64,000 nt of DNA, taken from NCBI GenBank assembly GCA_903813345.2, contig CAIIXF020000012.1:1343318-1407317 (forward strand), read 5' to 3'. A program made the position numbers and the translations under genes. Below, in pieces: positions 20,750 through 52,700 of this stretch. The stretch is from Owenia fusiformis (Eukaryota > Annelida > Polychaeta > Sabellida > Oweniidae). Numbering within the stretch: position 1 is the first letter of the stretch; the number at the start of each line of letters is the position of its first letter. The notes under the pieces are model-generated. The model made no database searches. It saw only the letters and a program-made list of their open reading frames with translations, and was not told the DNA's origin.

Positions 20750-21685
20750 ATGGAATTAGGTAAAAACAGAATCAAAGAACTTGAGTTAGCCAAGAAACTG
20801 TACAGGGAGATCCCAAACATAAAAAGTGAACTGAATCATATCGTAGGTGTCCAAATGCTTTGGTCTGATGGCCAAAACCTAGCACTCATTTACTGTGCTG
20901 ATTTATAAGTGAAGGCAACCATACTATCAGTTGGTCAAGTCAACATTAATGGACAGTTTGTGTTAATAACAAACTACACCAAGCAGTCTGTCATGAAACC
21001 CGAGAGGGTATCAATACATGGTATCCCTTTTCACATCTCCAATGATGAAGTTGCACAATGGATAGATGAGAGAGTCGAAGTTACCACACCTGTCCAGTAC
21101 GCAATAAAGCAGAGTGGTGGAGTGACCATTAACACCGGTAACCGTTTCTGCTATGGTCATGTGAGACCTGATGTAATATTCCCACGCTACAACACATTTC
21201 AGACATCAAACCCATTTGACAGAGAGATGCTTATCACAATAGATGTAACAGTGTATATTAACTCCCAGCCAATAAACTGCACCAGATGCAAGGATATCTC
21301 ACATACAAGCAGAGAGTGTCCTGGTAGAACTCCAACCTGTAGGAGATGTTTCGGAATTGGTCATTTTGCTCGAGAATGCCCTGAAAATGAGGACACTCAG
21401 CCAATTGATCAAGCAACACCACAGAGTGCTCCTAATCTAAAGGACACTAAGATCGTGAATGATAAAAATGGGAATGGTACTACAGAAAATGAAGATGAAG
21501 ATGAGAACACAGTAATAGAAGCACCACAAACATTAAAAACTAAGCAAGTTGAAAAAACAGTAGAAACACCAAGTAAGACAGAACGGTCAAAGCGGCAACA
21601 AAACTTTACCCCTACAAGTGCAGAAAAACCACCGAAAAAAGACAAATATGTAAAAACCAACATCAAAAGAAAAAATGAATTATAG
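20750..21685 (+). pseudogene. LINE ORF1 (nucleic-acid-binding, CCHC knuckles)
   Basis: One reading frame broken by a TAA at 20906-20908. Before it: MELGKNRIKELELAKKL and QMLWSDGQNLALIYCADL; after it an RRM-like stretch (RVSIHGIPFHISNDEVAQWI), then two zinc knuckles CTRCKDISHTSREC and CRRCFGIGHFAREC (C-x2-C-x4-H-x4-C), then a Glu/Lys-rich tail. In the family ORF1 coats the LINE RNA. The single in-frame stop in otherwise conserved sequence suggests modest age, or less likely a readthrough codon. Confidence 0.82.
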
Positions 21686-21711
21686 TGTCACCTCCACAAA
21701 ATAGAACTCTA

Positions 21712-24700
21712 TGAAGGTCTGCTCTATTAATGTTAGAGGTCTGAAAAATACACGAAAAAAGAAAAGCAATTTTTAATTGGATAAAACAGAACAAGATTGA
21801 CATAGCATATTTACAGGAAACTTACTATAACGAAAATTTATATAATTCATGGAGGTCTCAATGGGGAGGTGACATTTGTGGTATCGCTGGTAAAGGCGAC
21901 AAAAGTAAAGGTCAATTGATCTTACTAAATGAAAAAGCAGATATTAGTATAGAAAACATTGAAGCTCCAAGATGTGATGGACGGGTACAAATTGTTAATG
22001 TCAGAATGAACGATAGTATTGTTACATTAATTAATGTGTATGCTCCTAACAAAGACATTGAAAAAATATAATTTTTTAATAAGTTAGTTGAAATATATGA
22101 GGGCTATGAAGATAATGATTGTATAATAGCAGGTGATATGAACTGTGTTTTAAATAATGATCATGACATAATCTCAGGAAATCCACATAATATTAAAGTA
22201 ATAGAATCGTTTAATCATTTGGTTAACGTGCATGGATTAATTGATGCTTGGAGATTTTTTAACCCAGATACCACAGAATATACCTGGAGTAGAAACAGTC
22301 CCTTCATAGCAAGGAGACTAGACTATGTATTCTTAAGTAATAATCTATCAGGTAAAGCAATAGGATCTGAAATTTTACCAAGTTATAGCAGTGACCATAG
22401 ATCTGTTATAGTAGAAATCAGTACGAGGGAACATAAAAGGGGCAAAGGTTACTGGAAAATGAACAATGGACTTTTAAAAAACATGGAGTACATAACAAAG
22501 ATTAATACATTAATTAGCCAAACAATAGAAACATATCAAAATGCTGTTAATCCGCAGGTGTTATGGGATATGTGTAAATGTCTTATTAGGGAAGCAACAA
22601 TTAGTTTTAGTAAAGAACATGCAGCAAAGGTAAAATCAAAATATAAAGCAACTGAATATGAACTAAAAATAGCACAGTCAAGGCTCTCATGTGAGACTAA
22701 CCATGATAATATAGAGCGTGTTAATAAACTTCAAATGCAATATGATTTAGAAACACAAAAAAAGACAGCTGGGGCACAAATCAGATCAAAGGTAAAATGG
22801 ATAGAGCAGGGGGAAAAGAATTCAAAGTATTTTTTGGCATTAGAAAAGGTTAGGGGTAAAATGAAATCAATTGATGAATTGGTAGTTAATGATAGAAGGT
22901 CAAACTCAACAGAAGATGTAATGTCCATGTTATATGAGTATTATTCTGAAATGTATGAAGAAAATGAAGAGGTAATATATACTCTAGATGATTTTTCAAA
23001 TGATTTACAAATTCCCATGTTAAATGAGAATGAGCAAATGACATGTGAAGGGATGATTTTAGAAACAGAGTGTACAAAGGCCCTGAAAAACATGAAAAAT
23101 GATACTAGTCCGGGAATAGATGGGCTTACGCCTGCCTTCTATAAAGTGTTTTGGTTAAAGGTAAAAGCTCTTATCATTAACTCATTGAATTTCGGCTTTG
23201 AAAGTGGACAATGGTCAAGTAGCCAAAGACAAGGCATTATAATTTTATTAATTAAGGGACAAAACCTACCTAGAAACAATTTAAAGAATTTTAGACCAAT
23301 TTCCTTGACATGTATAGACTATAAGCTTGGGGCATCAGTTTTAGCAAATCGAATACAGCAAGTCATTCAAATCTTAGTAAACTCAGATCAAAACTCTTAT
23401 ATGAAAGAACGGGGAATTCATTTAAATTTAAGATTAATAGATGATGTCATGAATTATATCAATAATGATAATTTACAAGGAATAATGGTTGCTTTTGATT
23501 ATTCTAAGGCTTTTGATTCAATGTCTAAAAAGTATGTTTTTGATGTAATAAAAAAGTTTAATTTTGGTCCACAACTTCTCAAATGGATAAAGGTCTTTAA
23601 CAAAAACACAACATCTACAGTTACAAATAATGGTTATTTCACAAAAGATTTTGTATTAAAAAGAGGTTTAAGACAAGGCTGTCCTCTCAGTGCTCTACTT
23701 TTCATACTTGGAACTGAAATATTTGCAAACAGAATCAGACAAAATCAAAATATAAAGGGAATTAAAATACATAATACTGGAAAAGAAGTAAAAATCACTA
23801 GCTACGCTGATGATACAACTGCATTCTTAGATTCAACTGAATCACTAAGAAATTATCTTTTAGAGGCAGAACACTTTTATAAAACATCTGGTTTGAAATT
23901 AAATAAAGAAAAAACGAAAGCTATGTGGCTAGGTAAGGAAAGGGATAATAATGATAAACCTCTGGGAATAAAATGGGAACTTGGAAAAAATGCTGAGATA
24001 AAGATTTTAGGGGTTTACAATAAACAAGCTTGTTTAATTAATGAAAATTGGAGTGAAAAAATTGACAAAATGGAAAACATAATCAGAAATTGGAGTAAAA
24101 GAAATTTGTCTTTTTTGGTTAAAGTATGTGTAGCTAAAAGTCTTATATCATCCCAAATCAATCACATGCTGATGGTATTCAAAGCACCAGACAACTACCT
24201 TAAAAGATCAACACACTATTGTATAAAATTTGGCAAAAAGCTGGAAAGGGAATAGAAAAGATTCAAAGAAAAATTTTATCTCAGGATACTGCACTTGGTG
24301 GAATTAAAATGGTAGATATATTTTGTGTCAGGAGTCATTAGTCCTATCCTGGATTAAAAGATTTTTAAGTAAAGAGGAATCTCATTGGAAGGAATTAAGT
24401 AAGTTATTTTTTCATAAAGTTGGTCATAATTTTGATATATTCTTATACAACACTACTTTAGGCTCTATAAAACCTCAAATCAAAATTGAAAAATTGCCAG
24501 ATTTTTACCAGTACTTACTTAAAACATGGTTTAATAGAAAAGTTCCAAGTAGTCATATCTATGAAAACGATATTTTATGGAATAATAAAAATATAACATA
24601 CAAAAGTAACTGTATATTCTTTAATTTATGGAAAACAACAGGGATTAACTCAGTATCTGATGTGTTAGACGATCAACTAAAATTAAAAAATATTGAGTAT

Positions 24701-25976
24701 TTCTTAGGTATTATGCCAAATAACCCTGGTGTTATGCTTGAATTTAATATTGTAAATAATGCTTTGAAAAATAGGGTGATATATAAAATGATGAAAAATA
24801 AACATGGAATTAAGCAGATGGATATACAGGGTGTCAAATAAGTCCCGTCCCCCCCTCTACAGCCAAAACCAAGATATGTGGTACCAAGTGTTATATATCA
24901 TTGGAAAGATTGTCCAAAGTTAAGTTGATTGGCACATATCTGATACCTGTCAATCATTGTCACAAATTGCTACATTGTATCAAATGAGGTGACCAAAGAC
25001 CTAAAAACAAGGCAATTTGGCTTATTTGGCAGGATTTTTAGAATCGGGCATTAGAGAAATCAAATGAGCTCAAGATGACAATTAAGTATATGGTGGTGAA
25101 TTTAACCCATTTCTGGATTGGGTAAGATGTGTAGAAAATAGAGGGGCAAGGATAGTGGTGGAAACTTGTTTGTAACAAGTGGAATGTGAAAAATATTAAC
25201 TTTTTGACACATTTTTGAGGCCATTTCCTTCTCATTTTTACGCAATAAATGCTGCTGTAGGAGGGCTCACTCACTATTAAAGACATCATAAAAATAAAGG
25301 TAAATTTTATCCAAAATACTTGAGAGTATGTGAGTTAACGTAACTTTGGATGATCTTTCCAATGGTATATCACACTAGGTACCATCTATTAAGGGTTTAG
25401 CTGTAGAGGGGGGGGACAGGACTTATTTGACACCCTGTACACAATGCAAGAGCAAGGGACTTTAAGAATATGATTCTTAAAACAACATCTGTTACACCAA
25501 AATGTGTGGAAATTTGGAATACTGAATTTAATGATTTGAATTGGGGAAAAATTTGGGAAATGGTGAAAAATATCAAAGATACGAGAATTAAAAGTTTAGT
25601 TTATAAAATTATTCACCGTGTATATCCAACTCAAATACATTTATATAATTGGAAAATAAATACGGTATCAAGAAACTGTAAAAGTTGCTTAGATGAAAAT
25701 GATACATATGAACACTTTTTCGTAAAATATAAGAAAGTCAAAAATTTGTGGAAAGAAATAGAAACAAGATTAAAGATTAAGTTTGGTAAATGTATTAGAA
25801 TAAATGAGAGACATATATTGTTGATGTATGAACACAAAAATAAATTTGAAGAATATTATTGTAACTTAGTCATTCAAATAGCGAAACTGTGCATCTCCAA
25901 ATTTAAATATGGTGAACATCCCAATTTGCTAACGCTATTTGAATTTGAAATAAGATTACGAAATGTAATGGTATGA
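21712..25976 (+). pseudogene. LINE ORF2: AP-like endonuclease, reverse transcriptase, C-terminal Cys domain
   Basis: Starts MKVCSINVRGLKN at 21712, changes frame at about 21765 and has a stop at 22069-22071. Endonuclease motifs are seen in order: YLQETYY, INVYAPN, IIAGDMNC, RRLDYVFLS and YSSDHRSV. Reverse transcriptase motifs: FRPISLT, VAFDYSKAFDSM, GLRQGCPLSALLF and SYADDTTAF (the catalytic YADD). A further frame break lies near 24255. The distal part is cut by a 611-bp MITE at 24827-25437. The C-terminus resumes at 25470 with CKSCLDENDTYEHFF, the zinc-ribbon-like end typical of this clade. Mobility is lost through several independent lesions. Confidence 0.88.
24827..25437. mobile_element. 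MITE (611 bp) inserted in LINE ORF2
   Basis: Ends CAGGGTGTCAAATAAGTCC and its complement GGACTTATTTGACACCCTG, each next to TA (24825-24826 and 25438-25439). The inverted repeats extend imperfectly for about 100 bp (CCCCCTCTACAGC, then TTGGAAAGAT...CCAAAGTTA). TA duplication and long TIRs suggest a non-autonomous Tc1/mariner-class element. A lone end of the same family is at 61303-61330. Confidence 0.88.
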
Positions 25977-26639: not shown

Positions 26640-26822
26640 GGCTTACGGACAACTCATCCCCTAGACAACTCATCCCTGGACAACTCATCCCCTAGACAAC
26701 TCATCCCCTAGACGACTCATCCCCTGGACGACTCATCCCCTAGACAACTCATCCCCTGGACAACTCATCCCCTAGACAACTCATCCCCTGGGCAACTCAT
26801 CCCCTGGACAACTCATCCTTTA
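26640..26822 (+). repeat. Left terminal array of the MULE
   Basis: About eleven units of GACAACTCATCCCCTA or GGACAACTCATCCCCT. Units alternate CTAGAC and CTGGAC between the CATCCCC cores, some with GACGACTC variants. It is the inverse of 30935-31142. Confidence 0.9.
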
Positions 26823-27755: not shown

Positions 27756-27888
27756 TGACTGGCATTTGAGAACAGGATTAACAGAAACTGCTATTTAAGG
27801 CAGGAAGAATGTTTCCAAGTCAGTTTCGACTTCAATTATTATAGCAACAATACATATAGTAATCTACTTCTACTACTAAAGAGGCCAA

Positions 27889-29772
27889 GTGATCCAGATA
27901 GTCAACAACAGGATGCCGGCGCCATCCAGGCCATGTATAGAGTGCAAGAGGACAGTTCGTCCAAAGCAAGACTCTCTGACCTGTGCAGTATGCTCTGGAA
28001 GACAACACAGAACTTGCAGTCCTCTATTTTCAAGAGAAGAGTATTGGTCCATGAAGCGTAATGGGGACCTTATCATGTGGAGATGCAACAATTGTCAACA
28101 CCGCAACCTAGAGGACCTGCTTAATAGTGCCAGTGAAATTTCACAGGGGACAAATTCATCAATAGGAGTTCCTGCCGCAGAGAGCACTGCGATTCAACAT
28201 GAATTGGGTGAGACCCATGTCACACCACCATCCCTGCAAGAATATAGCGTACAAATCCGGAACATTACAGAGCCAATGGAAGCCTCGTTTAATGTTGACA
28301 GACCATTTGATGTGCCGGATAGGGATCAAGCTGATACGTTAATGGAGGATCAGCTGCCTGATAATGTCGCCCCTGTCGAACCAGTTGCAGTGACATATGA
28401 AGTCATCTGCCAAGCTTCACAGCGGGGCAATCAAAAGCTTGTGGATTCTACAGGATATACATACACCGTTAAAGCCAAGACTGACTCTCGTATTTCCTGG
28501 CGATGCAGTATTCGTAACAAGATTACCCTTTGTCCAGCTAGGGTCACCCAGCGTGGGTCATCATTTACCAGAGGCCCACAGCTTCACATCCATGAGCCGA
28601 ATATGGATGCTGTAAGTCGCATCAAGGTTGTTCTTGATGTGAAAAAGACAGCTAAGGAATCTATGTACAGATCTGCTTCAAACATCGTGGAGGATGTACT
28701 CGTGAGGGATGAAAGGGATATTCCAGCCAACAACCAACTTATCCCTGATAATCTTGTCAGGATGGCCAATCGGGCCCGACACAGCTTCGACCAACTGAGC
28801 CAACAGATCTCAACTTTGAAGTTGCTGAACACTTCCTACCCCCTGGATTCCTCCAGCAGGATATTGCAATGGTCGATGGCGCATGTCATCTCATCTTTGC
28901 GAAAGAAAATCAGCTGGATCTCTTGGCTAAGGCCAAGGTTTGGTATATGGATGGTACCTTCAAGATCGTAAGTGACCCCTTCAGCCAACTCTTCTCAATC
29001 CATGCCTTCATCAAGGGGGAAGATGGTGACATCAAGCAGGAACCTCTTGTTTGTGTCCTGATGTCTCGACGTAGGAAACGGGATTACAAGGCAGTTTTGA
29101 GGGCGGTCATCGATCTGATCCCTAGTCTTGGATTAGTAAAGGCAGTTGCGGACTTCGAGGCTGGTCTTTGGGGAGCAATGCGCAGGGAATTCCCTGACGA
29201 TGTACAGCTCTCTGGCTGTGTGTTCCACTGGGCACAGGCTGTTTGGAGGAAGATCCAGGAACATGGCCTGCAGGTAGCATACACATCTGATAGCCATCCA
29301 CAAGTTCATCAGACAACTGTTTGCCTTGCCATACCTACCATATGAGCACATCCCAACAGCGTTTGCCAACCTTGCTGAGAGAGCGACACCTCTTCTTCAG
29401 CCCATCATGGATTACATCGATGATACATGGATTACTTCAACCATCTGGCCACCTTCAACATGGAGCGTATTCAATCAAGTGATCCGGACAAATAATGATG
29501 TTGAGGGGTGGCATCGCAGGATCAACGGGAGAGCAGGTCGATCACAGTTGCCAATGTACGTGCTGATACCCCTTCTGCACGATGAAGCAAGGCTTGTTGA
29601 CCTACACACCAAATTAGTGAAGGAAGGCAAACTCCGCCGTTTCCAACGCCGTCGTTACAAAAACATTCAAGGACGACTTGACAGGATCTGGGAGAGATAC
29701 CAAGAGGGGGAAATAACAACGGAACACCTGTTGAAGTCTTGCGGTAAGATCGCTGCCCCAACTGCTTCATAG
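27889..29772 (+). pseudogene. FLYWCH/PHD-type MULE transposase, two frameshifts
   Basis: Order of domains: a PHD-like finger (CIECKRTV, CAVCSGRQHRTC, WRCNNC; first 70 residues), an acidic linker, a FLYWCH-type finger (YTYTVKAKTDSRISWRC, then CPAR and HIHEP), then a MULE DDE domain. The frame shifts near 28800, after which FEVAEHFLPPGF, KVWYMDGTFKIV (first Asp), VKAVADFEAGLWG (second Asp) and CVFHWAQAVW (CxxH) are read. A second shift near 29295 leads to KFIRQLFALPYLPYEHIPTA and NNDVEGWHRRIN (catalytic Glu). The catalytic DDE and CxxH residues all survive, so the copy decayed recently. The start is chosen before the PHD-like finger; an upstream short exon is possible. Confidence 0.88.
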
Positions 29773-30934
29773 AATATATGGAATAATCTGTGTAACACTG
29801 AGTGAACATTGACTACAATTCTGGTGAATTATAAACAGTGGTTCTAATGATACTGTGAAACTGGTGTAGAATGAACTGTATACTTTATGTTGTACATTAC
29901 AACTTAAAAAAAACTATTAGAACATTCAATTTTTCAATATTATATACTGTAGGGGTATATAATGTAATGTATATATTGTAACTCTTACATAGCTGTTAAT
30001 AAGTTGTATAAACAATAGAAATACAACATTTTTGAACCTTCACTTTATTTTATGTTTGCTTTTTTCAAAGTAAAGTTGATCAAGTTTAGCTTAAACAAAT
30101 GGCATTTCTGATTGCAATCAATCAATCTCCTATAAATCTCCTATGAAGCTATCTCTGATCATTAAAGGGTTCCGATTAGCATCCCGTATAAAAACAATAT
30201 GGCGGCTCCAGGCGAATCAACTGGATCAGTCCATTTTTAAGAAATAAGGGGAGTTCTGTAAAATCCAGTTTATTGAAATTGTCTTTGAGATAAAGAAATC
30301 CGTTTATAATGATTTTGAAAACGTTATCCAAAGAGTGATTGCGTTCAAAGAATAGATGTACAACAGCCAATATAAATCCTTAGAAACCGGTTTGTCTTGC
30401 TTTGTTTCATTTGTAGGATATTTCATATGCCAAGCTGTGTGCTATTACGTTATGGGGAAATTTAGATGCCAATTTTTCCTTATTATACACAAATAGAAGA
30501 TCCTGAAACTTCACCCATAAATGTGGAATTGATTTGTCAAAATAAAAATCACCCTTTTATAAATGTGTGACGATCTATAATATACTTATGCTATATAACA
30601 GTTAGAGGTGTTGACACAACGACCTCGAACCTGTGAACCCTTGAGTATTATTCCGGGATCGGGCCTTTTATACTAAACGGTGAGCAACACTAGAAACGAG
30701 CGTTCGATTTGCTAAACGATATGCGTCACCCTTTAAAACACTGCTAAAACAGATTATATAATAATTAGGGTATTATCTAAAACATTAAGTATAATTTCCA
30801 GATTACCCCTCTAGAAAGCCTTTGTTCATGTATTATATGTTTTTGACACTTGAAATATTAAACGTGAAAAAATCATTTCAATATCAAATATGAATTGATA
30901 ATATAATATTTAATTTCTCAAACATGACAAAGGA

Positions 30935-31142
30935 TGAGTTGTCCAGGGGATGAGTAGTCCAGGGGATGAGTTGTCTAGGGGATGAGTTGTCCAGGGGATG
31001 AGTTGTCCAGGGGATGAGTTGTCTAGGGGATGAGTTGTCCAGGGGATGAGTTGTCTAGGGGATGAGTTGTCCAGGGGATGAGTTGTCTAGGGAATGAGTT
31101 GTCCAGGGATGAGTTGTCTAGGGGATGAGTTGTCCGGTTACC
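30935..31142 (-). repeat. Right terminal array of the MULE
   Basis: About thirteen inverted units of GGGGATGAGTTGTCYA ending in GTTGTCCGGTTACC. Mirror of the left array. The same right end closes the non-autonomous copy at 13917. Confidence 0.9.
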
Positions 31143-40164: not shown

Positions 40165-43100
40165 TTATACTGGGCCTGCTTTCTCCAGGATCTTTGTAAT
40201 TAGGGCTGTCCAACCTGTCTGGTGACTGGAAAACAGGACAATTGGTAACTTTAACCTTTGGTCAACTCAACCTTTTAACAAGGCATTAACATGCAAAAGT
40301 CACCACCAGCCATTTGTTACAGACGCCAACGCCGAACACCATCCACAAAATGTTGGAGACTATAACAATACATGTATGTAACCACTTTGGGTTGTGACAT
40401 AATAATGTAAACCTTAGTCAACTGCATCCTTAGTAAACTTGAGACTTTTCATTAGAGGATTGTAAGATGAGCATGTAAATCAAAGTATTGAAACAAAATT
40501 GTTCCCTGGTCAGCTAAACCTTTGGTCAACTCAACCTTAGGTCAGATCAACCTTTGGTCAACTCAACCCTTATGGTCAACTAATAGTCTATAAATTAAGT
40601 CAACTCAAAACTATGTCTTAAAGAGGTTCAGCTGCTCATACCTGGCTCCAAGCCCCTGCCCCGAGTCCCCATGGAAATATTCATTGAATAGCACCAGATC
40701 TCGCCAATAGGGGTCAGCAGCATATTTGTCATTATTTCCTAAAAACAAACCTGTGCTTATGATCACTGAATAAAGTTAAATGTTCTATAATAATGAAAAT
40801 TTTAAGTATGTGATATCATATCATTTACTATTATGTTTAAGTTTTGTGAAAATTGTACTATTGAACATAATATGTATTTATGTAGCCTGCCTGACATCTG
40901 TTTGCTAATTCTAAACTAGAAGAGAACCTATCAATATAGAAATACAAGAACACACAATTGTATTTCTCACCGTGACATGGTCTAGCTCCTTTGGCATTAG
41001 GTAGAAATATTTTGCTAATTCGCCGACATAATTCTTTAGCGACATCTCGCAATCTCAGCTTTTGTTTTGAGCGGGTAGGAAATGCTACTTTCAGGTCATC
41101 ACCATAGAAACTATCAAACTTCTCAAGAGACTCAATTATGAGGTAGTTCACTAAAAGTAAAATTGTAAGAATGTGATAATCATGATGTTCATCCTTCAAT
41201 TGCTACATTTATCAAAACTACCACATATTCAACATTGGGAAGGAAACATATCAATATATCAAGTAGTATCTGTATTTTACAATTATCTTGTTTTTTAATT
41301 TTACATTTGATGATGTTGTAATTAAAATTGTATTTTACACTTACTACATATCCAGACTGGTCCCCTCCAGTTACTGTTTCCTCCAAACATATCAGTATTA
41401 GATTCCCCTGGAGCATATGACACACTGTATTCTTTCTCCCCCATATCCATGTGGAATATTGGACCACCACTATGTACCTAAATACAAACATATCAGTATT
41501 AGATTCCCCTGGAGCATATGACACACTGTATTCTTTCTCCCCCATATCCATGTGGAATATTGGACCACCACTATGTACCTAAATACAAACATATCAGTAT
41601 TAGATTCCCCTGGAGCATATGACACACTGTATTCTTTCTCCCCCATATCCATGTGGAATATTGGACCACCACTATGTACCTAAATACAAACATATCAGTA
41701 TTAGATTCCCCTGGAGCATATGACACACTGTATTCTTTCTCCTCCATATCCATGTGGAATATTGGACCACCACTATGTACCTAAATACAAACATATCAGT
41801 ATTAGATTCCCCTGGAGCATATGACACACTGTATTCTTTCTCTTCCATATCCATATGGAATATTGGACCACCACTATGTACCTAAATACATAACAGCATT
41901 TATCAATATGTTTTTTCAGTCTTGTAAAAATACATGGAATTCACCAACAGAATTTCAACAAAGTGGCATGAATTTTCAACTGCATTCAGGCACATGGTTG
42001 CTTTAATATCAGGAGGTCAAAACTTGTTACCTCACCCCAAAATTTCTACAAATAATACTTTAAACAATACTAAGTGCAGTATTTGATAAAATTGATTCTT
42101 AAAGTTCAGCAACTGTGCAAAATTTCATCAATTTGTTTCTCATCCTGAAAACTGAAGATTTAACAATAATTCAACTGCAGGATTTGAGAATACTTTATAA
42201 ACAGAACACTACAATGACATTTGCTGAACACTACAATAATATTTGCTGAGATCTTGATTACATAAGCCAAATTGTTGAAACATGAAAGTACTGACCTGAA
42301 CATTGAAGATAATGCTGTAAGGGTTCTCCTTATGTACCTAAAAGAAAACAAAAATATTTAGGTTAAATAGACGGGAATAAATACAGATTAGCCTCTTGAA
42401 TACTAGCCTCTAAAAATGGTTTAAAACCAGAGCATTTTTCATTTTTGCCAGTTTTTGGACATCTACCATCTAAATACAGTTTAAAATCCTGTGACAGATA
42501 TATCCGTCACTCAGAGCTTCCATGGAATTTTATTGGGAACAGAAATATCTGCCATTCTGGGTATTCAAGGGGTTAAAGAGGCACAGTACGATTTTCTCAA
42601 ATCAAATCTACTCATAAATAACAATCACCTCAAATAATTACCTTGAGACAATACCATTGGTATCATTCCCCCTGTTAGCATCGTAAGAAACACTTTGAGC
42701 AAAATATCCTTTACTGCCCCTTTAAGATGATATAGTTGAATCATTACAAGGAGTAACATACCTTTGACAAAGATCGTATTCCATATGGAGACAAAAATTC
42801 ATCTTCATCTAAGAGGTAGGAAAGTATGCTTTCTAGTTTGTCTTTCCGAGGAATTGACAGAAATTGAACGGAGTCTCTTTGTGAGACCTGCAACAAAATT
42901 AATCAGGTATTTCAAAATCACAATTTTTATTTACTGATTCAACTACTGCAAAACTAGTCTTATAAGTAAATTGATGCTTTGTAAAACTCATTGTATTGTG
43001 ACAATTTAATAAATTTTTGTCCATTTTCTTAATTTACCTTTTCTTTTAAATCCACTCGTCTCTCAAGCAATGCATCAAGACGCTTTGTTAACTCGGGTAA

Positions 43101-46100
43101 ATCACCGACCTTTGACATATCAAAAGTCAAGGTTGCAAACAAAGGCACTATACCAGATAGGGAACGGGTATGAAGGCGTTTGAACTCATCTTCAATTTGG
43201 AAGCAATCATAGTAGAACTTATGATCTGGACACCAAAGACCTAAAAGATAAGTATTATGAGATACTACAAATAAGGTACATCCTCTTCATATAATACAGC
43301 ATAAAATCATCAGAATTCAAAACATCTAAATCCCTAATTACATATGAGAAACTTTAGGTAATAACTTATCAAAGCGTTTTTATAGTGTAGCTAGAATTAA
43401 CTATGTAGCAAGATTAAAAGGAAGATATGTTATGTTTATTTGACAGATGATCTGTGCTCTGGTGCAACTTATTCTAATCATCAAATATACTCAAATATGC
43501 GCATAAATTATGCAAATTAGGTGAGTTACCTGGATGAGTGACCCAATTTAGTTCACCCAACTTGCATTCTGAGGGTTTGAAGGGCACTAAAATTCAAATA
43601 CAAGTAAGTACAAATCAAACAAGGCATTAACATGCAAAATGTCACCACCTACCATTTGTTACAGATGCTGAACACAACTACCAACCATCCATGGGCGTAG
43701 CCAGGGGGGGGGGGGGTGCGATGGGTGCGATCGCACCCCCCATAACCTTTGAAAATGTGACCATTGGATAGAGGAAGAACAGAGCTTTAAAATGCTTTTT
43801 ATTTGAAGCTTCTAGCTCAATTTTGAAGGAAGTTGCATAAATTTTTGTAAAATTCAAAAGAAATCTTAATTTTTTGTGTTGCTTATGCCAAAATCGCACC
43901 CCCCCTGACCGAAAACTGACATTTTTTCGGCGATCGCACCCCCCCTGACTGAAAGCTGGCTACGCCCCTGCCACCATACACAAAAACATTGGAGACTATG
44001 ACAATAATATGTCACCATTTCTGGTGGTGACATAAAAACTGTCTGAGATACATGGGTCAAAGACAATGCATGGAGCTCCACTGCTGCAGCACTTTCCTTA
44101 CTACATTTCTTAAATAATAGAGAAAATCAAAAGTGGGGAATAATTGCAGTAAAACCTGTATATCTAAATACCTCTCTAATCTGAACATCCTTTGATGTGA
44201 ACACTTTCTTGGCCCACAACTTAAATCTGCCATGGACATTATGTTACAAAATCTCAAAATGTGATCACCTGCCATTATGAACACTTTAGGTTTGACATTC
44301 AGATGAGACAGGTTTTACTGTATGTAATAAAAGGAAGTATGTGAAGAGCAATGGCATTATGTAAATTGTGTTTGGTACAAGGAAATGCTGACCTATTTTA
44401 TCTAATTTTATTACATAATAATATTGGTGGTGTATAAAATTCAAGCATTTAAGTAAATGTGAACACTATACTAATGATGCCGTTAATTACACCAAGCATG
44501 GGATTCTTAAACAAATGTAATCTGATACTTAAATAAATACTATAGCCTTTTTAAATTTGTAATTTTGTCACCCCCTATAGATCAGATTCTGCCTTTAATC
44601 TGATACTTAAATAAATACTATAGCTTTTTAAGTTTCAGAATTTTAGCACTAGCACTCAGGCATCTATCTAAATGTACCTTCAATTAATAGACCCCACCTA
44701 AAAGGTAATACAACTCAGGCCCTAGCCAGGGGGGGGTGGTTCGGGGGTTCGGGCGAACCCCCTTGGCCAAATATGCCAAAGTGAACCCCCCCTAGAATTT
44801 TCGGGAAAAGTGAACCCCCCTTGAAAAATTCTGGCTACGGGCCTGCAACTTACAAACTAAAGGTTTAACAATTAATACTCATACATATGCATAATATTAC
44901 CTTGGTGATCCTCCGTCCCATTGATGGCCTTCACAATACAGAGATAATGTTCATAAAACTTGACAGCTTGGTCAATGTATGCCACGTCATGATGACTCAA
45001 CTCTACTGACATCTCAAACAATGTCAGGGCAAAGAATGCCATCCAACCTGTGCCATCAGCCTGAAAGAGAGACCACATGAAATGTTTTTGACATGTTGCC
45101 TTATAAGGTGTGGGTGGGGGGGGGTAAGGGAGTACAACACAGGTAGTAATAAATAATTCATAATCCAATTTTTTCCCTTATATTTGTTGGACAGTCTTTT
45201 TTATATTCAATATTTCATTCTATGCTGCAGTCTGCCCTATTTACTACCTTTATAATAAGTTATACCAAAGAATTCTGTTATGATTCCCAAAAATTTCATA
45301 TGGTATTTAGTACTGAAATGAAAGCTTTTATCATTTTACAAAAAATCAGTGAAATTTCACAGTTCAGTAAGCCTTAATGAATTAAACACCAGGGTGGAAG
45401 TAAACAATTTATCCAGTCCAACTCTGAAAAGGTCAACAGTTGTCAGATGGCAATATAATATGTACACCTGTATGTATAATATGTATACCTGGAATAGGTT
45501 TCCTTCATGAAATGGAGGGTCAGATCTATCAAAAGCTGCCACATTGTCCATGCCTAGGAATCCCCCTGAGAACAAATGTTTGCCTGTTGGGTCTTTCTTG
45601 TTCACCCACCTAAATATAAATGCAATATAAATATATATGCAATATAACCTTAATATAAATGCAATATAACATATCAAAGGCTGCCACATTGTCCATGCCT
45701 AGGAATCCCCCTGAGAACAAATGTTTTCCTGTTGGGTCTTTCTTGTTCACTTACCTGAATATAAATGCAATACAAATATATATGCAATGTAACCTAAATA
45801 TAAATGCAATATAAATATAAATATATATGCAATATAACCTGAATAAGAATGCAATGTTGCCTGAATATAAGTGCAATATAACCTTAATAGGAATGCAATG
45901 TAGCCTCAATATAAATGCAATATAACCTGAATGTAAATGCAACGTAACTTGAATATTAAATGCATAACATAATTATGTATGCAATAGAACCTGAATATAA
46001 AGTACATGTATTAATGAAATAAACCTTGAGTAAAAGACAATTTAACATGATTATCATACAAAGTACCCTTTATATTTTTCTGAAGCGCCTTCATAATTTG

Positions 46101-49100
46101 GACAACTTCAAGTATTAGTTCAATATTCATTTTCAAAATTAAAGGCAGTGACAGGTGTTATATCTAGCCTCCAAAGTTAGAAACACAAAAAGTTAGAAAA
46201 TGACTGAAATTCTTACCAAGCAAAATTGAGCAGAAGTTTATTGAAGCACCTCTTCAAGAAGACAACATCAGTGCTGCCCTCTTTCTGGCCATCTCTGTAC
46301 ACGTTCAGGCAAGCCCAGGCATGCACAGGAGGGTTGACATCACTGAAGTTATTCTCATAGGCCGGCAACTGGTAGGAATGAGAGAAATTAGAATAGTTAG
46401 CAAAATATCCAAGAAGACTTAGGATTGGTGTCCAATTACCAGCAGTTGTGGAAAAATGAAGTAAATTTTGTTTGGGGGTGTTATAATGATGATTTTGTTT
46501 TTCCATAATTGATGGTTATTGGACATCATCCGGATTTAATTTGTATGTTAATCTTAATCCCCCTTCATCCTGTTTTTATTTAATTCTTAATATGAAATCA
46601 ATTATAATACATAAAACATAGGATTATGTAGGAATTCAAAGCCATTGCTTTCATCAGGGTAGCCACATGTTTTTCAACAAATACATCAATTATTGCATTA
46701 TACTAATGTCTGTGAATCTACAGTGCTCTCTTTGACTTGATTTGCTTGGATGACTGAATTTCCGATTAGCATAGTAATTTCCATTTTCTCACCTGCCCAT
46801 TAGGATGCATATAGCCCTCATTCAGAAAGAGTAAAAGTTGTTTCTTGGTGAATTCCCTATCAATGTCTGAGAATGGAATCATGTGGAAGGCCAAGTCCCA
46901 AACTGCATACTACAAAAACAACATTCAAGATACATGTACATGCATATTAATTACTCTGAATTTTGTCCCAAACTACATACTACAAAAACAACATTCAAGA
47001 TACATGTACATGCATATTATTACTCTGAATTTTGTCCCAAACTACATACTACAAAAACAACATTCAAGATACATGTACATGCATATTAATTACTCTGAAT
47101 TTTGTCCCAAACTACATACTACAAAAACAACATTCAAGATACATGTACATGCATATTAATTACTCTGAATTTTGTCCCAAACTACATACTACAAAAACAA
47201 CATTCAAGATACATGTACATGCATATTAATTACTCTGAATTTTGTCCCAAACTACAACAGTATTCATGATCCAGTAATACATGTATATTATAGTCTTTGA
47301 ATTGTGTAATTTGTCAAAAACATCTATATCTCTATTTTTGGGGGAAAGTGTTCAGCTTTTGGCGATTGGTGCTCAGTGGTTGGCATTTGTTGTCTGTAAC
47401 AAATGGCAGGTAGTGATATTTTGCATTTTAATGCCTTGTCTTCCCTGTGATTGTTTCCAAGGACTTTAAGTCCAACAGCATTTACATTATTTACATACCC
47501 AAGGGAATTCCCATTTATCGGGCATAGATATGACATCACAATTGTACAAATGCTTCCACTCGTGATTGGTTCCAGTCTTCCTGCTTTCGGGAAGTTCAAC
47601 TGCGACATCATCCCCTGAAAATGAAATATGTTCTAAAATAAACATGACTTCTAAATATTTCACATAGCCTTCTACAGCAAATAACATGTAGAGCTTTGGG
47701 AGGGGCATGAATATCTATTTGACTTTTTCACATCAGATTCTGCCATTTCTTCAAAATGTTTAATTTACAAATACCCACTAAAAATGACACTATGGGGTGT
47801 GAGGGTCATTAATGATCTGTCATTGGTGTTAATATCACAATTTGGGTTTTCCTTGGTATTCTCAGTCTCAATAATGTTGTCATTATTTATATTATTGTTG
47901 TTTTTAGTGCTATCATGTCGTTGCTGTTATTGAGAGTGTGACCCTAAAGGTTTTTAAGGTTTACACATGATACCTGTCAGTAGTAATGCAATAAACATTT
48001 CTATTTCAACTTTCAACTATCATATAAAACTTTTTACCATTTATCCATTTTCTGACATCAAAGTGATAGAACATCTTAGTCCAGAGCAGACCAGCATAAG
48101 CTTGTCTTGAGACCTTTCTCTGCTCACTGGATAGTGTGGGAGGTAATACCTTTAACATACAATGAAAATGAAATAAGACACCCTCCGAAACATAGCGCTC
48201 CAGAATGGAAAAGAAATAAGATATTCTGGATCTTGGAGTCATGTGACCTGAGGATGGAAATTGGATTGATCTTGGAGTCATGTGACCTGAGGATGGAAAT
48301 TGGATTGATCTTGGAGTCATGTGACCTGAGGATGGAAATGAATCCAATGATATTAATTGATTAGTATGAATATTCTTTTAAATTCACATAAACATTGTCA
48401 AATATATTACCTTTTGGTAAAATGCATCAGTTTTCTGGGATTCAGTTTCAAATCCTTTCTCAAACTGTCTTCCAAACACATTGCCATGGTTACCAGTTGT
48501 GTCTCCTGCTGAGATGATGAACCTTACAGTACTTTCACCACCAGGTGGCACTAGCAACTTATGGCAAACAGCAGCTTTAGTGCCAGTGGCTCCATCTTTA
48601 GTTAAAGCAGCAGATTTGTCGCCTAAGAAGATATCATGAATGATGGAGATAATGGGCAATATATCAGAAGTCAACTCATAAGACTCTTAAAGACCCACTC
48701 AAGGTACAGTAAAGGTAAACTAAGACAAGGCATTAACATGCAAAATGTCGCCATTTGTTAGAGATGCCGAATGCCAACTGCCAACCACCAACCGCTGAAT
48801 GCCAAATACAAAAAAAGTTGGACAAATGAAACATTGTGTCACCACTTTTGGTGGTAACATAATTAACTTATAAGACTAAACTACATTTATAACATCAAAG
48901 TAAGGTATTTACAGTATACGTACATCCAAATACTTACAACAACATAAAGACTTTAATTGCACCTCTCGTCCTCTTATAATCTTTAAAATTAAGGTGATTT
49001 ATTTACTTGCTCACCACATATCTTTTTCAAACTACTAGTATAGCAAATAAGAAAATCCCCATCTGTTGATAGCATTTTTTTCTAATTTAGGTGTACTACA

Positions 49101-52100
49101 GGATCAGAGATAGACTGAGATCCTTTAACATCCAATATAAGTATATTTTAACTATTTATATACAATTACAGTTTAAGCTAAAATCACAGGTCAGCAAACA
49201 TACCATCAACTATGTATTTATGAAAGCCATCTTTAAAAGGTCCTTCATTCTCTCCACTGTTTGTTATATTATTGGTCAACATAAAATCTCCTTCATTTCC
49301 AGAATAAGACTTTTCTGACATCAATGTGAAACTACCTAAAAATTATTTTATGTTGATTATGCAAAGGACTTCCAATATTTTCTTGTTATGGGAAATATGC
49401 GTACTATTGAAAATATCAGGCAAAGGAGGAGTTACATTACTACTACGTTACTACATTTACAAAATTCAATGATTAGTATGCAATGTTTTTTTTTTGGGGG
49501 GGGGGAATCAAGCTAAAATGAGTTCAAATGGACTAGGTTTTGTATATGTATATAATGCTAAAAAATGTCTAAAAGATTACAGAAGGAGTGTACCTTACCC
49601 ATATCTTCATGGTCACAGAGAAAGTCACCATCCTTGAGCTGAATAGATGGCACCTCTGTTGTTCTACCTGGGTGACCTTCACCCCATGACCATGTGTTTC
49701 TATAGCAACATTACAGTGCATACATTCAGGAATTATATAGCAATATAATGTACGCAATGTAAAAAACTACAAGCAAGTGCCTAGCAGTGGTCGAGCAGTA
49801 ATAATTACAATGAGTGTTTCTTTGACAGAATGATCTATGTTTAGTATTTCTATGATAACATTCTGCTTTTCTATGATTATGGTCTACATTCTAAGTTTCT
49901 ATGACAACATGATTTACATATTCTGTGTTTCTATGACAATATGATCTACAGGTTGTGTTTCTGGTAACAACAACAGTATGTTCCTAGTTCCTACCTGAAC
50001 CATATCTGAGGTATAACATGTACCTCTGCCTCTTTATTCCCTCTGTTGTGTACAGTAACTCTGCACTGTATGGATCCATCAGTAGTCTTAGCATACTCCA
50101 TGAAAACATCCCAGTACTTGTCATTCTCAAATACACCTAAAATCAGATATGTTTAGAAACAAGTTCAGTATATTGGCATGCATCAGCATTCAGCAAAGTT
50201 ATTGTTTTGGGGGAAGGGGTAAAGGGATTGCAAGTATTGGTGTGCATCAGCAGATGTTATTATTTGGTAGAAAGGGTAAAACATCCCAGTACTTATCATT
50301 CTCAAATACACCTAAAAACAGACATGTTTTGAAACAAGTTAAGTATATTGGTATGCATCAGCAAAGTAATTGTTTTTGGGAAGGGGTAAAAAAATTGCAA
50401 GTATGATTTGTTATAGTTTGTAATAAAACCCATATAACATAGAGAGCACAACCAGACATGAGCAAAACAAACCCAAACTATGATCTAACCCACATAGAAA
50501 TTATGTCTAACACTCCCCACCGCAATTCAGGAATCATAATCACAATAAAAAAGATATATCAATCCTGAAATCATTTCAATACATGTTGGAAACATTTTCA
50601 TTTTTCTTGACATCAAAAATTGTTTTAATGTAGATACTAGTAAGTATTCATTCTAATGTTTGGTGATGATTACTGGTAATGAAATGTGTTATTATTATAG
50701 ACTCATACTTGCTAATAGACTAGCTGCGAGTAGAAATAATCTTGATTTACATCATTATTAATATTCAAAATTCAGTCAAATTGATGTCATATTTGAAATC
50801 TACAAGTAAAAGTACATCTAGAAATATGGTTTCGAAAATTGTTTATCAATTTTGAAAATTAAGTTTTTTTTTGAAAATATGACTTCTAGTTCGGGTTGAT
50901 TCCCCATAGACCCAATGTTACAAAATCACAAAAAGTGAAATATCTTTTCTTGTATTGGACAGTTAACATTTTCTTTTACTGGACATATTTTAATTTGCAT
51001 AACTATAAGATACATACGGGTAATATGAAAAGTGAACCACTAAAACAGATGTAATTTCAGTTAAAGGGAACTTTCTACCATACCTGCCATGCTATCTGAC
51101 CCGAACGAGCCACCTGGTGGTGAAACTGGTAACAACTTACTCGTATTTGCGTTATTAACTGAAGGGTTTAATGAGACTTACCTGATTTTAATGTCACTTA
51201 CCTGTATCTATCAGTTCATATTCAGGATCGTTTAATCCTCTACTTGCATTTTCCTCAACTAAATTCTCATATGGGAATAGTTCTTGGGGGTACTTATAGA
51301 GGGCCTTCATGTAACTATGTTGTGGATTGCTGTCAAGGTAATAGTAGCATTCCTTTACATCTTCACCATGGTTTCCCTGCAATAAGAGCAATGATGATTT
51401 AGGAAAACAGGTTATACCTGCATTCGTGTCAGTTTATAGAATTGGCAACATCCAGGGTGAAAGATTGCCTTTTCCTTTGAACAGATATATCAGGCCCGTA
51501 GCCAGGGGGTGTTCGCAGGGTTCGGGCAAACCCCCCCTGGCCAAAAATTCTTTCAAAATCATGCAGTTTTTCACCATTTTGAGCACTTTTCTAGTGACTT
51601 TAGCCATATTTGGGCCAAAATTGTCAAATGTGAACCCCCCTGGAAATTTTTGAAAACTGAACCCCCCCCTTGGCAAATCCTGGCTACGGGCCTGTATATT
51701 ATATAGGGACATGTTCACATCTAGAAAAAATGTGTTGATTTGCTCATCTATTTGCTTGCAAGACAAACGAGCCTTTCTTTGATATGAGGGTCCTTCCCAT
51801 TCCAGAAACTAAGAAAAAAGCAAAGACGAGACTTGCTTACTTGTTTGCCTCCAAGACCAAAGAACCTCTCTTTGATATGAGGGTCCTTCCCATTCCAGAG
51901 CCCAAGGGACAAGCAGAGACGAGACTTATCATCACATATTCCCATGATTCCATCTTCACCCCAGCGATAAGCACGGCCTCTGGCGTCATCATATGTAAAA
52001 CTGGCCCAGCTGAAAATACAAACAGGAAAGCAAGAAATAAATAGAAGATTTTTACTATAGCCACATTTTTAATTCCTCTAAGTCTGAAGTCTGAAGCCCA

Positions 52101-52700
52101 TATCATGGGCTTTCAAGAAGAGCCCCATGCCCATGAAGGCAATCATCAAATATGCTGTGCAAGCAACGATAAATCATAAAATGAAGGTACTGGAATATAC
52201 TGTGAGGATTACACATACAGGAATTCTGTCAATGTCATTTGAAGGGCATCTCAATCCAGGTGGACATACAGTCAATTCTGTTGGCAATAATTTATCAAAA
52301 TCATGACCAGATTACGTAGTTCAATACAAAAACACAAATAAAGGCTAAGGTACATGAATGATTGTCTGAGGACATACAGCGTAGACTCTTTATAGGGCTT
52401 CAGTCCTTGGTCCCGAATAAAAAATACTGGAGTAATAAATCAGAGAAGTTGAAGTACAAAGAAGTCTATCAAAATGAATCAAACATACTAATCTCCATCC
52501 TTGGAGTAATCCTCTCTCACAGTGCCCCACTGTCTATCAGCAAGAAAGGGTCCCCAACTAACGAATGTACTTGGTTCCCTATTATCGCCCACTGAGGGGA
52601 AACGCCCACTTTTTCTTGTTGATTTATCACTTGTTTCACCTTGCGTGCGCTTAGGAGATGGTTCTATTGAACTTCTACTACTAGAACGTCGTTTCGGCAT
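40165..52700 (-). CDS. GH63-type glycoside hydrolase (920 aa, 20 exons)
   Basis: A complete gene model from the sequence. Exons, in transcript order: 52700-52489, 52009-51841, 51376-51202, 50136-49995, 49699-49599, 49335-49204, 48622-48411, 48149-48038, 47614-47499, 46909-46793, 46368-46217, 45609-45489, 45060-44901, 43240-43038, 42887-42762, 42337-42296, 41477-41345, 41150-40971, 40738-40642 and 40225-40165. Every intron is GT-AG, phases agree and the total is 2763 nt including TAA. Motifs: [18 protein letters not shown] and [13 protein letters not shown] (N-terminus), [70 protein letters not shown] (Asp506, likely general acid), [19 protein letters not shown], and [20 protein letters not shown] (Glu888, likely base). 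These define the (alpha/alpha)6-barrel family with yeast YMR196W and many bacterial homologues, usually annotated as glucosidase; the substrate is unsettled. No signal peptide, so probably cytosolic. Exon 16 is only 42 nt. Confidence 0.93.
40277..40402. repeat. CAAGGCATTAACATGCAAAA repeat, copy 1
   Basis: Shares the consensus (CAAGGCATTAACATGCAAAA, CACCACC, CATTTGTTACAGA, GTTGGAGACTA, GTGACATAAT) with 43618-44036 and 48725-48862. TGTCACCACC-like and GGTGGTGACA-like boxes near the ends hint at short inverted termini. It lies in the last intron of the GH63 gene. Next to it (40230-40276 and 40498-40590) are short repeats of TTTGGTCAACTCAACC. Confidence 0.7.
41386..41887 (-). repeat. 101-bp tandem array duplicating the 5' part of GH63 exon 17
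   Basis: Five nearly identical copies. Each contains, on the minus strand, the splice acceptor GTATTTAG, then 93 nt of exon encoding [19 protein letters not shown] and [11 protein letters not shown]. Only the copy at 41386-41477 continues into GGNSNWRGP and a real donor. The four others lie upstream in intron 16 and present decoy acceptors. Confidence 0.92.
43618..44036. repeat. CAAGGCATTAACATGCAAAA repeat, copy 2, interrupted
   Basis: Same family as 40277-40402, split at about 43691 by the GGGCGTAGCC element (43692-43970); the second half (TTGGAGACTATGACAATAAT... GGTGGTGACATAA) resumes after it. This gives the relative age of the two elements. Intronic in the GH63 gene. Confidence 0.78.
43692..43970. 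repeat. GGGCGTAGCCAG fold-back MITE
   Basis: Ends GGGCGTAGCCAG and CTGGCTACGCCC are inverted. Inside are GGGTGCGATCGCACCCCCC blocks on both sides. It inserted into the repeat at 43618-44036. A decayed relative in reverse orientation is at 9011-9240. Confidence 0.8.
44147..44320. repeat. CAGTAAAACCTGT fold-back MITE
   Basis: Ends CAGTAAAACCTGTATATCTA and ACAGGTTTTACTG are inverted; GTGAACACTTT and its partial complement lie inside. The ends look like those of pogo/Tigger-class MITEs. Related degenerate copies are at 26128-26320 and possibly 36350 and 61340. Confidence 0.72.
44716..44845. repeat. CAGGCCCGTAGCC fold-back MITE, copy 1
   Basis: Ends CAGGCCCTAGCCAGG and CTGGCTACGGGCCTG are inverted, with CAACT on both sides as a probable 5-bp target duplication. 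Contains GTGAACCCCCCC blocks. Same family as 51491-51694 and 63112-63319. Intronic in GH63. Confidence 0.78.
45528..45762 (-). repeat. 145-bp-offset duplication of GH63 exon 12
   Basis: The 5' two thirds of exon 12 with its acceptor (45528-45609) recurs at about 45672-45755. In the upstream copy the acceptor is followed by GTAAGTGAACAAG, so splicing there would give an immediate TAA in frame; the downstream copy is the functional exon. Confidence 0.85.
45611..45990 (-). repeat. Intronic minisatellite (AATATAAATGCAATATAACCT)
   Basis: Degenerate units of about 18-24 bp built from ATAAATGCAATATAACCTGA, surrounding and following the duplicated piece of exon 12. The short ORFs here are artefacts. 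Confidence 0.75.
46900..47257 (-). repeat. 70-bp tandem array carrying the GH63 exon 10 acceptor
   Basis: Five copies with period 69-70 bp. Each contains, on the minus strand, TGTTTTTGTAG followed by TATGTAGTTTGGGAC, i.e. the acceptor and first codons of exon 10. Only the copy at 46900 runs into the exon ([15 protein letters not shown]). In the decoys the second codon differs (TAT GTA). Confidence 0.9.
48228..48340 (-). repeat. 39-bp tandem repeat in GH63 intron 7
   Basis: Three copies of TCTTGGAGTCATGTGACCTG followed by AGGATGGAAATTGGATTGA. Unlike the other arrays in the gene it does not include exon sequence. CATGTGAC is an E-box-like word repeated three times. Confidence 0.85.
48725..48862. 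repeat. CAAGGCATTAACATGCAAAA repeat, copy 3
   Basis: Third copy of the family at 40277 and 43618, intact in length but diverged. It ends CACCACTTTTGGTGGTAACATAA. Intronic. Confidence 0.7.
50103..50400 (-). repeat. Duplication of the 5' edge of GH63 exon 4
   Basis: ACATCCCAGTACTTGTCATT... with the acceptor and about 85 bp of intron (50105-50222) recurs at about 50281-50399 as ACATCCCAGTACTTATCATT. The upstream copy therefore carries a second acceptor and the codons for FENDKYWDV. Confidence 0.85.
50715..51155. mobile_element. Dispersed element (about 440 bp), copy 2
   Basis: Aligns along its whole length with 12685-13142, including TCGGGTTGATTCCCCATAGA and GAGCCACCTGGTGGTGAAAC. It sits in GH63 intron 3. 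That the same element is in two host genes and a MULE shows it has moved. Confidence 0.78.
51491..51694. repeat. CAGGCCCGTAGCC fold-back MITE, copy 2 (best copy)
   Basis: Ends CAGGCCCGTAGCCAGG and CCTGGCTACGGGCCTG; interior GCAAACCCCCCCTGGCC and TGAACCCCCCTGGAAATTTT. Flanks ATATAT and TATATT suggest a short target duplication. Lies in GH63 intron 2. Confidence 0.85.
51766..51928 (-). repeat. Duplication of the 3' part of GH63 exon 2
   Basis: TTTGATATGAGGGTCCTTCC and surrounding sequence occurs at about 51778-51838 and again in exon 2 at about 51872-51928. The intronic copy encodes [20 protein letters not shown], parallel to the exon's [17 protein letters not shown], and the two are joined in one open frame across the exon 2 donor, so retention would insert rather than truncate for some 30 residues. 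Confidence 0.85.

What the first reader, a model, noticed from the sequence alone, without database searches (positions are those of the whole stretch)
40165..52700. Exon edges repeatedly duplicated into introns of the GH63 gene
Five separate exons (2, 4, 10, 12, 17) have a local tandem copy of one boundary in the adjacent intron, up to five copies. In four of five the acceptor side is copied. One gene with so many independent events suggests a shared mechanism (replication slippage or template switching at acceptors) or selection for splice variation.
Basis: seen in the sequence. Interest (0 to 1): 0.75.

Follow-up and report, generated by a model that had tools for sequence, protein, structure and literature searches.

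The report
Exon edges copied into neighbouring introns
In a probable worm's sugar-cutting enzyme gene, five exon edges have been copied like a stutter into the next intron; the same stutter turns up in many other genes of this genome, a habit so far described mainly in lancelets.

Summary
The minus-strand gene (19 exons, 910 aa, MGH1-like/GH63 hydrolase) carries tandem copies of one boundary of exons 2, 4, 10, 12 and 17 in the adjacent intron: four acceptor sides, one donor side, about 2 to 5 copies, units of 70-175 bp. A short donor duplication at exon 3 may be a sixth.

It is not peculiar to this gene. In 189 introns of CCT, dynein, myosin and kinesin genes of the same genome, 12 of 41 tandem arrays span an exon edge (6 donors, 6 acceptors; 10 of 48 loci). 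Uniform placement predicts 6.1, p = 0.004, though the sample was enlarged in steps. Per base, arrays cover edges less than intron interiors, so most minisatellites here have nothing to do with exons.

The structures match the "mirages" published for lancelet genes. This genome is probably an annelid, perhaps Owenia. Use of any tested copy site would truncate the protein, so selection for splice variation is unsupported. Best reading: local tandem duplication and minisatellite expansion, tolerated because one boundary stays intact. The kind is known; its abundance in a probable annelid and the edge preference look new.

The parts
40611..52700 (-). MGH1-like/GH63 glycoside hydrolase gene, 19 coding exons, 910 aa
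   Evidence: spliced model with GT-AG introns and open frame; Pfam PF22422 and PF03200; bacterial homologues, 45-51% in the best segment, aligned
51841..52009 (-). exon 2 (native donor at 51841/51840)
51737..51922 (-). donor-side array of exon 2, unit 93 bp, 1.9 copies; the extra copy 51737-51829 lies in intron 2, its donor is no longer GT
51167..51204 (-). 20-bp tandem copy of the exon 3 donor; probable case only
   Evidence: TRF; canonical copy donor
49995..50136 (-). exon 4
50103..50404 (-). acceptor-side duplication of exon 4, unit about 175 bp (34 bp exon plus intron), two diverged copies
   Evidence: families D8 and D13
46793..46909 (-). exon 10
46895..47256 (-). acceptor-side array of exon 10, unit 70 bp (15 bp exon + 55 bp intron), 5.2 copies
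45489..45609 (-). exon 12
45527..45818 (-). acceptor-side array of exon 12, unit 145 bp (83 bp exon + 62 bp intron), 2 copies
41345..41477 (-). exon 17
41384..41895 (-). acceptor-side array of exon 17, unit 101 bp (94 bp of the exon lies in the array, about 7 bp of intron per unit), 5.1 copies, 99%
48229..48345 (.). intron-interior 39-bp array, not at an exon edge (contrast case)
49888..49962 (.). 32-bp array in intron 4; resembles but does not adjoin the exon 5 acceptor
   Evidence: TRF; resemblance by eye only

Best explanation
These are 'mirages': minisatellite-like tandem duplications that span an exon-intron boundary. A short stretch (here 70-175 bp) that happens to straddle a boundary is duplicated head to tail. 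The duplication is harmless because the copy contiguous with the rest of the exon still carries a complete exon, while the other copies come to lie in the intron. Slippage or unequal exchange then expands some pairs to many copies and keeps copies alike. This runs through the genome, on donor and acceptor sides alike, against a high background of minisatellites, with about a twofold preference for segments that include an exon edge. Shown: the arrays, their position, the coherent native gene, the occurrence in other genes, the edge excess in the sample, the absence of frame-keeping copies in this gene. Inferred: the duplication chemistry (template switching or end joining with little homology), the expansion step, harmlessness, and why edges are preferred.
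For: Arrays and gene model. Native gene coherent: 17 of 18 junctions have no gap at the junction itself against bacterial homologues, the exception being a 15-aa insertion at exon 16/17. Other genes: CCT, dynein, myosin and kinesin loci show edge-spanning arrays, most with intact copied GT or AG sites. Edge excess: 12 of 41 arrays against 6.1 expected after length correction, p = 0.0038; identity 90% or more, 8 of 19 against 3.61, p = 0.0053; periods 30-240 bp, 10 of 18 against 2.68, p = 3e-5; locus bootstrap of observed/expected 1.28-3.53. The last-collected family alone: kinesin 4 of 11 against 1.60, p = 0.03. Both sides: 6 donors, 6 acceptors. Units are multiples of three in 6 of 16 edge arrays, as chance predicts. 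Published precedent in lancelets: PMC3087553, PMC3902484 (passages).
Against: Per position, edges are not enriched: 4 of 71 CCT edges have a copy versus 682 of 5209 intron-interior positions, and in this gene 4 of 36 versus 152 of 952; in introns of 320 bp or more, 6 of 112 donors and 7 of 112 acceptors lie in an array versus 15.7% of mid-intron positions. The enrichment appears only when arrays are counted as events with unit-length placement. The sample was enlarged after each look: 92 introns 4 of 21 against 2.39, p = 0.18; 124 introns 8 of 30 against 4.12, p = 0.022; 189 introns p = 0.0022, so the p values are optimistic. Long strong arrays alone (period 50+, score 120+): 7 of 11 against 4.65, p = 0.11. 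No RNA, second haplotype or second species was available.
Confidence: 0.7

Rival explanations
1. No edge preference at all: this genome is simply rich in minisatellites, some fall on exon edges by chance, and the reader noticed a gene in the upper tail.
For: 29 of 41 arrays in the sample do not span an edge by 8 bp or more; per-position measures are lower at edges than in intron interiors; the first 92 introns showed no significant excess and long strong arrays alone show none.
Against: Event-level excess of about twofold in the full sample, p = 0.004, kept in arrays of 90% identity or more and of three copies or more; bootstrap interval excludes 1. Older edge copies might be easier to detect because one copy is constrained, but the high-identity arrays show the same excess.
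Confidence: 0.22
2. Selection keeps the copies because they provide alternative splice sites.
For: Many copies keep canonical AG or GT sites, e.g. all 4 extra copies at exon 17.
Against: Every copy position tested in the gene leads to a premature stop (14 of 14 positions, 11 canonical). Sites may be intact merely because copies are nearly identical. Units are multiples of three in only 6 of 16 edge arrays. Use for nonsense-mediated down-regulation is not excluded.
Confidence: 0.04
3. A mechanism acting specifically at acceptors (such as template switching at the 3' splice site).
For: Four of five cases in this gene are acceptor-side.
Against: The wider sample is 6 donors to 6 acceptors; units reach 15-97 bp into the exon (16 of 16 edge arrays) and 6-62 bp into the intron (14 of 16), so breakpoints are not at the splice site.
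Confidence: 0.03
4. Assembly artefact.
For: Copy counts in long near-identical arrays can be wrong; the globin paper reports an aberrantly assembled mirage in the lancelet draft.
Against: Copies within arrays differ by substitutions and indels (TRF matches 76-99%), and edge arrays occur in ten separate loci of the sample.
Confidence: 0.01

Closest known systems
'Mirages' in lancelet genes (Adh3, globins BflGb6 and BflGb9, troponin C, PGBD5)
   Same: Tandem minisatellite-like units spanning a 5' or 3' exon boundary, copied AG/GT sites often preserved; published units of 10-72 bp (Adh3) and 150-160 bp (globins) are of the same order as the 70-175 bp here (PMC3087553, passages; PMC3902484, passage).
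   Different: This genome is probably an annelid, not a lancelet. Regular splicing and length polymorphism, reported in lancelets, are untested here. The passages seen describe single genes, not a rate or an enrichment test.
Intron gain by tandem duplication (Rogers' proposal and the mirage model, both as told in PMC3087553)
   Same: The same substrate: duplicated boundaries with splice signals.
   Different: No new intron is shown. Exon 16/17 acceptors are the most alike of 153 pairs over one window and flank a 15-aa insertion: a weak lead only.
Exon 4 duplications in an earthworm metallothionein locus (PMC12783039, passages)
   Same: Annelid gene with exon copies said to be absent from the final transcript; a related clone has intronic minisatellites.
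   Different: In the passages seen they are not described as boundary-spanning minisatellites.
Mutually exclusive or tandemly duplicated exons
   Same: Local copies of exon sequence in introns.
   Different: Here only part of an exon plus one boundary is copied, with stops; what look like whole-exon arrays occur elsewhere in this genome.

Membership tests
Mirage (exon-intron boundary minisatellite) | Tandem repeat unit spans an exon-intron boundary | tested here: met
   Five cases in the gene; 12 of 41 arrays in the sample
Mirage (exon-intron boundary minisatellite) | Occurs at both 5' and 3' boundaries | tested here: met
   Gene 4 acceptor, 1 donor; sample 6 and 6
Mirage (exon-intron boundary minisatellite) | Native exon and reading frame intact beside the array | tested here: met
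   910-aa frame; no gap at 17 of 18 junctions against four printed bacterial homologues
Mirage (exon-intron boundary minisatellite) | Regular splicing despite copied sites | not testable with these tools
   no RNA data
Mirage (exon-intron boundary minisatellite) | Length instability between haplotypes or somatic | tested here: inconclusive
   only one match of the exon-17 array region in the assembly
Mutually exclusive exons | Whole, frame-compatible exon copies with both splice sites | tested here: not met
   copies are partial exons; using a copied site runs into stops
GH63 / MGH1-like glycoside hydrolase | Pfam domain over curated cut-off | tested here: met
   PF22422 66.3 bits (cut-off 27), PF03200 43.4 bits (cut-off 22.4); both are partial matches
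Host genome = annelid, perhaps Owenia | Linker-globin domain (that it is annelid-specific is recalled); 12 chromosomes, about 500 Mb | tested here: inconclusive
   PF16915 3 matches over cut-off, none in the control genomes, which are prokaryotes; 12 contigs of 32-62 Mb; Owenia assembly 505.8 Mb in 12 scaffolds (PMC9977687). Species not proven

The most novel reading that the evidence does not exclude
Exon edges are true hot spots of tandem duplication in this probable annelid genome: about 6% of introns (11 of 189 here, one with an array at both ends) carry a boundary-spanning array, so the genome would hold thousands of mirages, a standing supply of duplicated splice sites from which new introns could arise, evolved or kept independently of lancelets.
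Probability: 0.5. Interest if true: 0.7.

Novelty: new member of a known kind. Interest (0 to 1): 0.5.

Why it matters
Boundary duplications have been reported gene by gene in lancelets and proposed as a route to new introns. Finding them at a measurable rate in a distant animal, on both exon sides and above uniform expectation, makes the question testable: one annotated genome with RNA-seq would show how splicing copes with up to 20 near-identical splice sites in a row and whether any have become introns.

Tried and rejected
The position-level copy test and coverage profile show no edge excess; both are kept as evidence against, but they count expanded arrays base by base, so the event-level test was preferred. 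That test was run as the sample grew (92, 124, 189 introns; p = 0.18, 0.022, 0.0022), so its p values are optimistic. Intron-length inflation by the arrays was then corrected (expectation 5.76 to 6.1).

GC richness as the driver: interior arrays 34.6% GC, their introns 33.9%, all introns 32.3%, edge arrays 36.7%: a small difference. Junction homology: of 15 arrays examined, five gave a clear value (2, 2, 4, 14, 15 bp) and ten were unresolved, so the duplication chemistry is not settled. Second haplotype: none found. Lancelet identity: no GFP-family match, in a search that rang in no control genome (that lancelets have many is recalled); 12 chromosomes against 19 (recalled); linker-globin domain. 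No COX1 match was found for a mitochondrial test. A paper search for the assembly's size gave nothing.

Sample and dropped rows. The CCT arrays had been seen before the other families were chosen; loci were taken from hit tables, before their sequence was read. CCT: hits on C222, C12, C8:24.99 Mb, C3 and C7:13.37 Mb and part of the CCT beta gene were not fetched; HSP60 locus L007 was fetched but not modelled. Dynein: loci L029 and L026/L027 dropped (poor models), L028 used for its first four exons only. Myosin and kinesin: compact hit clusters picked by eye, 8 and 18 loci; others not fetched, at least one eligible kinesin cluster (C8:1.05 Mb) left out, and the kinesin locus with the visible 159-bp array kept out on purpose. 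Introns beside modelled exons under 40 bp were dropped; secondary myosin loci needed two agreeing references, kinesins a third of theirs; two conflicting kinesin introns were removed. Fragment ends hid further edge arrays (L008 9 copies, L010 20 copies), not counted.

Papers. Boundary duplications. Annelid or Owenia precedents: 7 papers; passages of 2 seen, PMC9977687 and PMC12153100, nothing relevant; 5 not opened; 2 papers; passages of PMC12783039 seen, PMC12130307 not opened.
Full report
THE OBSERVATION. The window is G000:C12:1343318-1407317, on a genome of 498 Mb. I rebuilt the gene by hand from the minus strand: 19 exons, 18 GT-AG introns, 52700 down to 40611, 910 aa. Pfam gives PF22422 (MGH1-like glycoside hydrolase) and PF03200 (GH63 C-terminal) over their cut-offs. 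Bacterial genomes encode relatives of nearly full length, 45-51% identical in the best segment (80 loci listed of 483). I aligned ten of the 80 with the window protein and printed four: 17 of 18 exon junctions have no gap at the junction itself, though some have gaps a few residues away; at exon 16/17 the window protein has 15 extra residues. So the exons that carry the arrays are credibly bounded and the native gene is coherent.

A 20-bp copy of the exon 3 donor is a probable sixth. The gene also holds repeats that touch no edge.

IS IT A HABIT OF THE GENOME? Genes were chosen through Pfam hits: CCT chaperonins, dynein, myosin and kinesin. Exons were placed by spliced alignment to reference proteins. 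After dropping weak models, 189 introns in 48 loci (98.0 kb) remained. TRF arrays of period 18 or more and score 50 or more: 41, of which 12 span an exon edge by at least 8 bp on each side (6 donors, 6 acceptors) and 29 do not. They lie in 10 of 48 loci and in 11 introns, one of which has an array at both ends. No array lies wholly inside the 39.4 kb of modelled exon. Examples: CCT alpha donor 154 bp x 2, CCT beta acceptor 96 bp x 4.2, a myosin acceptor 91 bp x 11.8, a dynein donor 30 bp x 7.1. Not counted, because the edge fell at a fragment end: CCT theta acceptor 83 bp x 9 and CCT beta donor 53 bp x 20. A kinesin gene outside the sample has an array of 159 bp x 17.9 over motor-domain coding sequence; its exon edge was not modelled.

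MORE THAN CHANCE? If each array began as a duplicated segment of unit length placed uniformly over introns and their edges, 5.76 of 41 should span an edge; 12 do, p = 0.0022. Correcting intron lengths for array growth: 6.1, p = 0.0038. Other cuts, length-corrected: period 30+ and score 100+, 12 of 23 against 5.71, p = 0.0012; the same with period up to 240, 10 of 18 against 2.68, p = 3e-5; identity 90%+, 8 of 19 against 3.61, p = 0.0053; three copies or more, 9 of 22 against 3.15, p = 0.0005; period 50+ and score 120+, 7 of 11 against 4.65, p = 0.11 (not significant). Observed/expected is 2.08, locus bootstrap 1.28-3.53.

Three things speak against reading too much into this. First, the sample was enlarged after looking: 4 of 21 against 2.39, p = 0.18 at 92 introns; 8 of 30 against 4.12, p = 0.022 at 124; then 189. 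The families added last, taken alone, give 4 of 9 against 1.82, p = 0.05 (myosin) and 4 of 11 against 1.60, p = 0.03 (kinesin). Second, position-level views show no edge excess: 4 of 71 CCT edges with a copy against 682 of 5209 interior positions; 6 of 112 donors and 7 of 112 acceptors covered against 15.7% of mid-intron positions. These count every base of expanded arrays, so I trust the event count more. Third, the thresholds are several. I call the preference moderate and probable.

IS THIS GENE SPECIAL? By the same TRF criterion it has 4 spanning arrays at 36 edges against 12 at 378, Fisher p = 0.04, in a gene chosen because it was noticed. Among its own 9 arrays, 4 span an edge against 1.47 expected, p = 0.03. 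The CCT beta gene looks similar: three edge arrays in the 10 kb held, one of them diverged. So it is in the upper tail, not a class of its own.

WHAT THE COPIES COULD DO. At exon 17 all four extra copies keep an intact AG, at exon 10 four do, exons 4 and 12 keep one each; the exon 2 copy has lost its GT. If any were used, the reading frame would stop early: 14 of 14 positions tested, 11 of them canonical sites. This speaks against selection for protein variants; use for nonsense-mediated decay is open. Units reach 15-97 bp into the exon in 16 of 16 edge arrays and 6-62 bp into the intron in 14 of 16 (168 and 200 bp in the other two), so breakpoints are not at the splice site. Of 15 arrays examined, five gave a clear junction homology of 2, 2, 4, 14 and 15 bp, and ten were unresolved: compatible with low-homology template switching or end joining, not proof.

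COMPARISON WITH WHAT IS KNOWN. Passages of PMC3087553 describe this in lancelet globins and cite Adh3: minisatellite-like duplications of intron-exon boundaries called mirages, at 5' and 3' edges, 6 and 3 units in two haplotypes, no interference with regular splicing by RT-PCR, somatic instability at Adh3, and a model for intron gain. A passage of PMC3902484 adds PGBD5 and troponin C. The defining anatomy is met here; splicing and instability could not be tested.

WHICH ANIMAL? Contig lengths fit twelve chromosomes of 32-62 Mb. The erythrocruorin-linker domain PF16915, annelid-specific as I recall, has three matches over cut-off within 15 kb. No GFP-family match was found, but that search rang in no control genome. 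PMC9977687 (passages) reports Owenia fusiformis at 505.8 Mb in 12 chromosome-scale scaffolds. I infer an annelid, perhaps Owenia; the species is not proven. In the held library I found no report of boundary minisatellites in annelids (not all listed papers were opened); the nearest is an earthworm metallothionein locus with exon 4 copies said to be absent from the transcript (PMC12783039, passages).

A WEAK LEAD. The acceptors of exons 16 and 17 are the most alike of 153 acceptor pairs over -12..+8 (16 of 20; mean 9.1, sd 2.1), and the protein's only junction insertion lies exactly there. Intron 16 might be a boundary copy turned intron. Over -8..+12 another pair scores higher and over -20..+20 another ties, so this is only a lead.

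VERDICT. Confirmed observation; a habit of the genome and of a published kind; edge preference moderate and probable; acceptor specificity and splice-variation selection not supported.

Noticed in passing
L138 146-2989 (G000:C2:23266200-23269900): Kinesin gene with an array of 159 bp x 17.9 copies at 97%; 18 Pfam hits to the last 38 motor-domain positions at that spacing. It looks like an edge array; the edge was not modelled.
   Followed up: partly
G000:C9:37977014-37994334 (minus), outside the window: Myosin heavy chain gene with 12 consecutive places matching the same stretch of the motor domain (profile about 25-84): looks like an array of alternative exons.
   Followed up: no
L014 (G000:C9:7081000-7089200): Dynein gene in which the stretch for AAA_6 positions 56-164 occurs three times (7082562, 7083728, 7087077).
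   Followed up: no
window 42296-42337 and 41345-41477: Exons 16 and 17 begin with the same 7 bases after similar acceptors and flank the protein's only junction insertion against bacterial homologues; possible relic of an intron born from a boundary copy.
   Followed up: partly
window 1697-6040: Open frame of 1447 codons with repeats of 99-bp and 297-bp period; ankyrin-like by eye, not tested.
   Followed up: no
window 20909-25976 and 27880-29772: Transposable elements: a LINE-like element with endonuclease and reverse transcriptase (PF03372, PF00078), and a MULE-like element with FLYWCH finger (PF04500) and transposase domain (PF10551) in overlapping frames.
   Followed up: partly
window 11501-11639, 13757-13910, 26648-26818, 30932-31135: A 16-bp unit (GACAACTCATCCCCTA and its reverse complement) recurs as separate arrays; a unit that looks related by eye lies in the CCT beta gene (L010, sense-strand 3940-4032).
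   Followed up: no
G000:C5:40221465-40222940 (L001): The only PF03200 match reported for the genome is a separate, uninterrupted 564-codon frame covering the model from 2 to 492; the window gene's short exons were not picked up by that search.
   Followed up: no
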